Source of the DNA: an uncultured Latescibacterota bacterium
GTDB lineage: Bacteria > Latescibacterota > UBA2968
Length of the DNA stretch: 64,000 nt
NCBI GenBank assembly: GCA_958295785.1
Contig: OY282377.1
Coordinates: 1,688,394 to 1,752,393, forward strand
Reading direction: 5' to 3'
Positions 6,696-7,793 of this stretch are shown one piece after another. The notes below the pieces were generated by a model. The model did no database searches and was not told the origin of the DNA. It was given only the letters and a program-made list of their open reading frames with translations. The first letter of the stretch is position 1, and each line of letters opens with the position of its first letter. Both the position numbers and the translations under genes were made by a program.

Positions 6696-6911
6696 ATGCG
6701 TTCTGCCATTTTTTGTCTCTGCTTTTTGCCCCTGCAAGTGCTGGCAAATTCACCGCCGTATCAAAAGATCGCCGATGTTTCGCTTGCAGGTTCGCTTTCC
6801 CTCTAGCACTATCGCCTCGCCAATGGCCTTCACGTTGCGATAGTTGAAGACGATTCGCATTCAAGACGCTTTGGCGGGGGCGGATACAAAAGAAAAAATA
6901 AGGGTTTTTGA
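6696..6911 (+). pseudogene. Remnant of a secreted M16-like metallopeptidase (N-terminal fragment)
   Basis: An ATG preceded by GAGG opens a typical signal peptide (MRSAIFCLCFLPLQVLA), and the frame runs to a TAG at 6804. Read past that stop, the same frame continues YRLANGLHVAIVEDDS, which resembles the first beta strand of M16 (pitrilysin/processing peptidase) proteins, and then degenerates to a TGA near 6911. The HXXEH zinc motif that should follow is absent. I read it as the decayed 5' end of an M16 peptidase gene. The resemblance is short, so confidence is low. Confidence 0.35.
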
Positions 6912-6954
6912 TATCCAAACCCCGATAGAATAGCAAAATAGTTTCTTTGATCTC

Positions 6955-6983
6955 TTGACGTTGCGTTTGAAGTTGGGTATGTT
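6955..6983 (+). promoter_or_regulatory. Promoter of small RNA 1
   Basis: A -35 TTGACG, a 17-bp spacer and a -10 TATGTT predict a start near 6990, three bases before the long hairpin. No coding sequence follows before the terminator. Confidence 0.65.
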
Positions 6984-6989
6984 TTCCAT

Positions 6990-7065
6990 ACAGCGGGTTG
7001 CCTCGCGTTTCTGTTTATTTTTCCCTCCCGATAAATAGAGCGCTCAGTTGGCAACCCGCTTTTTT
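6990..7065 (+). ncRNA. Candidate small RNA 1: long terminator hairpin with pyrimidine loop UCCCUCCCGAU
   Basis: An 11-bp outer stem (AGCGGGTTGCC at 6992-7002 with GGCAACCCGCT at 7050-7060) and a 9-bp inner stem (7010-7018 with 7031-7039) enclose a 12-nt loop at 7019-7030 ending in TCCCTCCCG; six Ts close the unit. Nearly the whole predicted 76-nt transcript folds into this one structure. The 11 nt at 7022-7032 are the exact reverse complement of the entire loop of the next RNA (7131-7141). The CCCUCC loop is also complementary to Shine-Dalgarno sequences, as in the anti-SD 'cuckoo' and CcsR RNAs of alphaproteobacteria. Expression is not shown; the call rests on promoter, fold and terminator. 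Confidence 0.6.
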
Positions 7066-7066
7066 G

Positions 7067-7095
7067 TTGACATGGCTATTTTGGCATCTTATCTT
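7067..7095 (+). promoter_or_regulatory. Promoter of small RNA 2
   Basis: A consensus -35 TTGACA begins one base after the terminator tract of RNA 1. It is followed by 17 bp and a -10 TATCTT, predicting a start near 7102. Confidence 0.7.
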
Positions 7096-7101
7096 GACCG
7101 C

Positions 7102-7160
7102 GCAGTTCGCAATACCGAGCTTTCGAGGGGATCGGGAGGGACCCCTCGAAAGTTTTTTTT
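7102..7160 (+). ncRNA. Candidate small RNA 2: terminator hairpin with purine loop AUCGGGAGGGA
   Basis: A perfect 11-bp stem (CTTTCGAGGGG at 7120-7130 with CCCCTCGAAAG at 7142-7152) carries an 11-nt loop, AUCGGGAGGGA, and is followed by eight Ts. The whole loop is complementary to the loop region of RNA 1, and ten of its bases are complementary to the loop of the minus-strand hairpin at 7531-7564. It has its own consensus promoter and no open reading frame. A loop of this kind could act as a decoy for anti-Shine-Dalgarno RNAs; that function is inference. Confidence 0.6.
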
Positions 7161-7288: not shown

Positions 7289-7465
7289 ATGCGTACCGAA
7301 TGCGTCGATCCGCGTTATGAATTGAATCCCAATGAAACGCATTGGATTTACAGCGCGGATGCTGTGCGGTCTTTGCTCGGGTTTATTGAGCGCGGAGAAA
7401 AAGACGAAGCCAAGCGCGTTTTGCAAGCGCGGCGATTTCCGCTCGGCTGGCAGTCCAATAAGTGA
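7289..7465 (+). CDS. Hypothetical 58-residue protein
   Basis: A strong AAGGAGG site six bases upstream decides the ATG at 7289. The product (MRTECVDPRYELNPNETHW and on) is soluble and mixed in charge, with a helix-forming Glu/Lys/Arg-rich C-terminal half and no recognisable domain. It is followed within 30 bp by an intrinsic terminator, so it looks like a real single-gene unit. It lies between the plus-strand small RNAs and the minus-strand terminators; its AAGGAGG site could pair with the CCCUCC loops, which is speculation. Confidence 0.55.
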   Translation: MRTECVDPRYELNPNETHWIYSADAVRSLLGFIERGEKDEAKRVLQARRFPLGWQSNK

Positions 7466-7523: not shown

Positions 7524-7564
7524 AAAAAAAGAGACGCTGGTCGGGAGGGAGTAACCAACGCCTC
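7524..7564 (-). ncRNA. Minus-strand terminator hairpin with loop UACUCCCUCCCG (3' end of a candidate small RNA 3)
   Basis: On the minus strand an 11-bp stem (GAGGCGTTGGT with ACCAGCGTCTC, two G-U pairs) closes the loop UACUCCCUCCCG and ends in seven Ts. On the plus strand the same two wobble positions would be A-C mismatches and no T tract follows, so the minus strand is the RNA sense. The loop carries the same CUCCCUCCCG core as RNA 1 and can pair with RNA 2. Upstream on the same strand (7590-7602) GATCGGGGAGTA could pair with the UACUCCC part as an alternative fold. I see no convincing promoter close by, so the 5' end is unknown. Confidence 0.5.
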
Positions 7565-7612
7565 AAAGGGATGTTGCCCGGTGACGTACTCCCCGATCTG
7601 GTTGCAAAAAAC

Positions 7613-7655
7613 AAAAAAACGGCGCTGACTCAGCCGGGGTATAGGAGTCAACGCC
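7613..7655 (-). terminator. Minus-strand intrinsic terminator
   Basis: GGCGTTGACTC and GAGTCAGCGCC form an 11-bp stem (one U-G pair, which is a C-A mismatch on the plus strand) with a 13-nt loop, followed by G and seven Ts on the minus strand. There is no minus-strand gene upstream within the DASS transporter region, so it ends an antisense or leaderless RNA of unknown role. Confidence 0.6.
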
Positions 7656-7793
7656 GATATTTTGCGACTCGCTTTGTCGCATAGTGTTTTTACGTTTCAA
7701 ATGTGGGGAAAGTTCCCCTGCGCGCTTTCTTTTTTTTTCGTTCTGATGTATATTGTCGCGCTTTCCAAAAAGTTGCGAGAAGGATATAAGGAT

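What the first reader, a model, noticed from the sequence alone, without database searches (positions are those of the whole stretch)
6955..7160. Two adjacent promoter-terminator small RNAs whose hairpin loops are exact complements
Seen: promoter, 76-nt hairpin RNA and terminator are followed one base later by a second consensus promoter and a 59-nt hairpin RNA. The entire 11-nt loop of RNA 2 (AUCGGGAGGGA) is the reverse complement of the loop region of RNA 1 (UCCCUCCCGAU). Both are transcribed from the same strand, so this is not simple antisense overlap. Established: anti-Shine-Dalgarno loops occur in rhizobial cuckoo RNAs and Rhodobacter CcsR. Inference: RNA 1 blocks ribosome sites and RNA 2 titrates it through a kissing loop.
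Basis: partly seen in the sequence, partly recalled or inferred. Interest (0 to 1): 0.85.

Follow-up and report, generated by a model that had tools for sequence, protein, structure and literature searches.

The report
Anti-ribosome-site small RNA with RNA sponge
Two tiny neighbouring RNA genes in an uncultured Latescibacterota bacterium have hairpin loops that match each other like lock and key; relatives keep the pair, some with matching changes on both sides, which suggests that one RNA blocks protein-making start sites and the other mops it up, although neither RNA has yet been seen in a cell.

Summary
Two sigma-70-type promoters (17-nt spacers) drive two terminated hairpins. The 11-nt loop of RNA 2 (7131-7141) is the exact reverse complement of RNA 1's loop region (7022-7032). 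The genome is a Latescibacterota MAG. Both RNAs, both promoters and the loop match are kept in all 11 genomes examined of its genus. An adjacent pair also exists in another genus of the family (G013) and in another family of the order (G020). In a third lineage (g6, four genomes) homologue-like RNAs lie on different contigs. The loops change together: G-C becomes A-U in G020; g6 has a 10-13-nt match with different flanking pairs. G013 is weaker (one mismatch). In the whole 5.66 Mb genome, pattern search plus folding found three U-tracted hairpins with an open CCCUCCC loop (RNA 1, H3 on the minus strand nearby, RNA1b elsewhere) and one with an open GGGAGG loop (RNA 2). CsrA is not found in the genus, Hfq not in the order. 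No Rfam family matches. Best reading: RNA 1 and its siblings carry an anti-Shine-Dalgarno seed that blocks translation starts; RNA 2 is their sponge. This works like CrfA/SisA-D (Caulobacter) and RosA/RoxS (Bacillus) but belongs to neither. Expression, targets and function are untested.

The parts
6955..6983 (+). promoter of RNA 1 (TTGACG-17-TATGTT)
   Evidence: the 17-nt spacing is also present in the genus and in G013, G019, G020 and G016
6990..7066 (+). RNA 1: about 75-nt hairpin with its own terminator (outer stem 6993-7002 with 7050-7059; U-tract 7060-7065); ends are inferred
   Evidence: fold z = -6.3; conserved in 11 of 11 genus genomes and found in G013, G019, G020, weakly in G016; stem pairs
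7022..7032 (+). RNA 1 seed TCCCTCCCGAT, anti-Shine-Dalgarno-like, in and beside the apical loop
7067..7095 (+). promoter of RNA 2 (TTGACA-17-TATCTT)
   Evidence: hexamers and spacing kept while the spacer sequence diverges across two families
7102..7160 (+). RNA 2: about 59-nt hairpin with U-tract, proposed sponge (stem 7120-7130 with 7142-7152); ends are inferred
   Evidence: fold z = -3.9; 3 stem pairs changed on both sides in the genus alignment
7131..7141 (+). RNA 2 loop ATCGGGAGGGA, exact complement of the RNA 1 seed
7524..7564 (-). H3: third hairpin, minus strand, loop TCCCTCCCGA and U-tract; likely sibling of RNA 1 (no clear promoter seen)
   Evidence: C-A mismatches on + are G-U pairs on -, in 10 genus genomes where it was found; fold z = -4.7

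Best explanation
Two independent small RNAs. RNA 1 presents CCCUCCCG in the loop of a stable hairpin and pairs with G-rich Shine-Dalgarno sequences of mRNAs, blocking translation initiation (inferred). Two other hairpins with the same core loop, H3 and RNA1b, look like siblings (sequence and fold shown; transcription inferred). RNA 2 presents the complementary GGGAGGGA loop, an SD mimic, and binds RNA 1, and probably its siblings, by loop-loop pairing, so it acts as their sponge (pairing supported by comparison; the sponge role inferred). Pairing would be independent of Hfq, since Hfq was not found in the order.
For: The pair with both promoters is in 11 of 11 genus genomes, loops invariant, RNA 2 stem with compensatory changes. 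Adjacent pairs in G013 and G020. Loop co-variation: genus RNA1 CCCGAU with RNA2 (A/G)UCGGG; G020 CCCAAU with CUGGG (G-C to A-U); g6 CCCGGC with GCCGGG in four genomes, 13 contiguous pairs in G016 and 10 in G015. The within-lineage assignment gives the best total duplex energy of 24 (tied 2 of 24). Genome-wide, three U-tracted hairpins with an open CCCUCCC loop and one with an open GGGAGG loop. CsrA not found in 11 of 11 genus genomes; Hfq not found in 21 of 21 order genomes, with positive controls. Experimental precedents: PMC12559287, PMC8216469.
Against: No RNA-seq or any expression data. In G013 the adjacent RNA 2 loop (CGGGAGAGAG) has a C-A mismatch; its own-pair energy is the weakest in its row (-15.4 against -24.1 with the genus RNA 2), though a second RNA 2 in G013 gives 8 Watson-Crick pairs, 9 with a wobble. 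Only four lineages are compared, so 2 of 24 is weak statistically. G019 has RNA 1 but no RNA 2 was found. The g6 RNA 1 was first seen at E = 0.003 and lacks a U-tract. The core GGGAGGG/CCCUCCC hardly varies, so covariation rests on the flanking positions. Tandem constitutive-looking promoters do not show how the two would be regulated apart. No target has been established.
Confidence: 0.6

Rival explanations
1. RNA 2 is not a sponge but a leader hairpin or attenuator of the next gene, and RNA 1 acts on it in trans to control read-through.
For: In G020 and g6 the RNA 2 hairpin lies just upstream of an aldo/keto-reductase-like reading frame and its T-tract is weak.
Against: In the window's genus and in G013 the hairpin has a strong U-tract and the next gene differs: a sigma-70 factor gene in G002/G005, an Na/sulfate-symporter-family gene in G001, a small unknown ORF in the window.
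Confidence: 0.15
2. RNA 2 is a decoy for the translational regulator CsrA (GGA in a hairpin loop) or for the ribosome's own anti-SD, and its match to RNA 1 is a by-product of both being SD/anti-SD-like.
For: The loop contains AGGGA and GGAGG; CsrA occurs in G013, G020 and three other genomes of the order.
Against: No CsrA hit in any of the 11 genus genomes that carry RNA 2. The match extends past the SD core (UCG; GCC in g6; CU in G020) and changes with RNA 1.
Confidence: 0.12
3. Tandem terminators with no regulatory RNA function; the loop match is chance.
For: No expression data; 11-nt inverted matches at this distance are not rare in the window (24 observed, about 3 in shuffles).
Against: A TTGACA-17/18 promoter lies before the RNA 2 hairpin in every lineage with spacers that diverge; loops stay fixed while stems change; only one open GGGAGG-loop terminator was found in 5.66 Mb.
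Confidence: 0.08

Closest known systems
CrfA sponge and SisA-D (alpha-R8 sRNAs), Caulobacter crescentus (PMC12559287)
   Same: a family of sRNAs with an anti-SD seed (UUUCCUCCCU) and one sponge that pairs to it through a G/A-rich stem-loop
   Different: Hfq-dependent; the seed is a single-stranded stretch, not a closed hairpin loop; another phylum; the paralogues of sisA lie at scattered sites. Here Hfq is not found and sRNA and sponge are neighbours.
RosA sponge with RoxS and FsrA, Bacillus subtilis (PMC8216469)
   Same: G-rich sponge RNA against sRNAs with C-rich seeds
   Different: RosA is about 229 nt, heavily processed, with several G-rich regions; RNA 2 is one hairpin of about 59 nt
alpha-r14 sRNAs such as NfeR1 of rhizobia (PMC10746234)
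   Same: identical anti-SD motif in unpaired loops of hairpins whose stems differ
   Different: three hairpins, each with CCUCCUCCC; RNA 1 has one hairpin with CCCUCCCG; no sponge is mentioned in the passages read
QrrX sponge of Qrr1-4, Vibrio cholerae (PMC9732341)
   Same: one sponge RNA serves several sibling sRNAs
   Different: not the CCCUCCC/GGGAGGG loop pair seen here; qrrX lies between vca0830 and vca0832 and is controlled by a LysR-type factor

Membership tests
any Rfam family | match at the curated gathering score | tested here: not met
   whole window scanned against 4227 families, 0 matches; best sub-threshold match GcvB 23.4 bits against 42
alpha-r14 (cuckoo) sRNAs | three hairpins each with CCUCCUCCC | tested here: not met
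   one hairpin with CCCUCCCG; definition from PMC10746234
alpha-R8 (SisA/MmgR) sRNAs | single-stranded UUUCCUCCCU downstream of a weak hairpin | tested here: not met
   seed lies in the loop of the strong hairpin; definition from PMC12559287
Hfq-dependent sRNAs | Hfq in the genome | tested here: not met
   no PF17209 match in 21 of 21 order genomes; 5 of 14 control genomes ring
CsrA-binding sponge RNAs | CsrA in the genome | tested here: not met
   no PF02599 match in 11 of 11 genus genomes; present in 5 other genomes of the order
sRNA sponge (functional kind) | base-pairs to a regulatory RNA at its seed | tested here: inconclusive
   conserved and partly co-varying complementarity; no binding data
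sRNA sponge (functional kind) | lowers activity of that RNA on its targets | not testable with these tools
   needs expression and reporter assays

The most novel reading that the evidence does not exclude
A minimal two-gene module, old at least to the order, of a 16S-tail mimic (RNA 1, anti-SD) and an SD mimic (RNA 2) that acts by loop-loop pairing without Hfq, one sponge serving several unlinked siblings, tuning translation initiation in an uncultured phylum.
Probability: 0.3. Interest if true: 0.72.

Novelty: new variant of a known kind. Interest (0 to 1): 0.55.

Why it matters
A literature search for 'Latescibacter' with 'sRNA' in the held library gave no paper, so these would be among the first regulatory RNAs proposed for the phylum. 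They would show the sRNA-sponge principle in a lineage where Hfq was not found, in a very compact form that is easy to test: two synthetic RNAs of under 80 nt and a two-plasmid reporter.

Tried and rejected
Rfam membership: none. CsrA sponge: CsrA not found in the genus. H3 as a plus-strand SD-like hairpin: rejected, its C-A mismatches on plus are G-U pairs on minus. Targets by pattern CGGGAGG-N4-10-ATG: 69 matches against 30 in the reversed control, which only reflects ordinary SD use; no target is claimed. Lax RNA 1 hits in G014, G015 and G017 (E 0.02-2) did not show a convincing loop and were dropped. Weak RNA 2 hits in G004, G005 and G008 are ordinary terminators without an SD loop. An 11-nt inverted match alone was rejected as evidence.

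Full report
Where it is. The window is part of one 5.66 Mb contig (G000:C1:1688394-1752393). An exact pattern from RNA 1 matched seven GTDB contigs, six titled Latescibacteria/Latescibacterota and one Gemmatimonadota, so the source is taken to be a Latescibacterota MAG; this is inference from its relatives' titles.

Promoter 1 (6955-6983), RNA 1, a U-tract ending at 7065, promoter 2 (7067-7095) and RNA 2 are as described. Folds are much more stable than shuffles (z -6.3 and -3.9). The loop match TCCCTCCCGAT/ATCGGGAGGGA is exact. In the predicted RNA 1 fold three of the eleven bases are in the top of the stem. By itself an 11-nt inverted match is not rare here (24 in the window, about 3 in Markov shuffles), so I asked for more.

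Conservation in the genus. A 301-bp query found the locus once in each of 11 genomes of the genus, the ten others at 75-79% identity to the window. Both promoters, both hairpins and the core of both loops are kept. In RNA 2, three stem pairs changed on both sides while the loop TCGGGAGGGA did not change. RNA 1 has two such pairs, not beyond shuffling on that measure (60 of 500), though overall pairing is (1 of 500). In the other genus members the edge pair is G-U where the window has A-U.

Beyond the genus. With covariance models R1 and R2, adjacent pairs turned up in G013 (same family) and G020 (other family), and RNA 1 alone in G019. In g6 (G015-G018), RNA 2 lies before an aldo/keto-reductase-like frame, and an RNA 1-like hairpin with a TTGAC-17 promoter lies on another contig. 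Promoter spacing is 17 nt in 15 of 16 cases read and 18 in one.

Do the loops change together? In G020 the base after CCC is A instead of G, and RNA 2 has U instead of C. In g6 RNA 1 reads CCCGGC and RNA 2 GCCGGG; G016 has 13 contiguous Watson-Crick pairs, G015 has 10. G013 is the exception: a C-A mismatch in the adjacent RNA 2, while its second RNA 2 (RNA2b) pairs better. Taking one RNA 2 per lineage, the true assignment is the best of 24, tied with the swap of the genus and G013, whose RNA 1 loops behave alike. This is support, not proof.

Siblings. Searching the whole genome for CCCTCCC or GGGAGG before a T-run and folding each match gave three hairpins with a fully open CCCUCCC under a long stem (RNA 1, H3 at 7531-7564 minus, RNA1b at C1:2535347-2535418 minus) and one with an open GGGAGG (RNA 2). 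RNA1b sits just after a reading frame that ends in TGA and looks like a 3'-UTR hairpin; hits to it came up in ten of the eleven genus genomes. H3 was found in ten of the eleven genus members read, and its strand is given by G-U pairs.

Helpers. Pfam Hfq was not found in any of 21 genomes of the order, with five of fourteen control genomes ringing. CsrA was not found in the genus but is in five other genomes of the order.

Mechanism and standing. Shown: sequence, predicted folds, conservation, promoter-like sites, partial co-variation. Inferred: transcription, pairing, SD blocking, sponging. It works like CrfA/SisA-D (PMC12559287) and RosA/RoxS (PMC8216469), and its loop motif resembles that of alpha-r14 RNAs (PMC10746234). 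It fails the tested defining features of alpha-r14, alpha-R8, Hfq-dependent and CsrA-sponge RNAs, so it is filed as a new variant of a known kind.

Noticed in passing
window 6698-6935: Likely remnant of an M16 peptidase gene: its start and its end resemble the ends of the full-length gene (904 aa in G002) upstream of the pair in relatives; most of the middle is missing here.
   Followed up: partly
L010 and L013, just downstream of RNA 2: G002 and G005 carry a sigma-70-family factor gene right after RNA 2; in the window that place holds a 58-aa ORF (7289-7465) with no Pfam match.
   Followed up: partly
window 7610-7657, minus strand: Another strong hairpin between H3 and the symporter gene; in G000 and G004 its plus-strand C-A mismatches read as G-U on minus, by eye, so it too may be a minus-strand RNA.
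   Followed up: no
L095, L096, L097, L092: In g6 and G020 the RNA 2 hairpin lies directly upstream of an aldo/keto-reductase-like reading frame.
   Followed up: no
L022, G000:C1:627082-627091 minus: A TCGGGAGGGA stretch just after a promoter-like site and before an ATG; the 130-aa frame may be spurious.
   Followed up: partly
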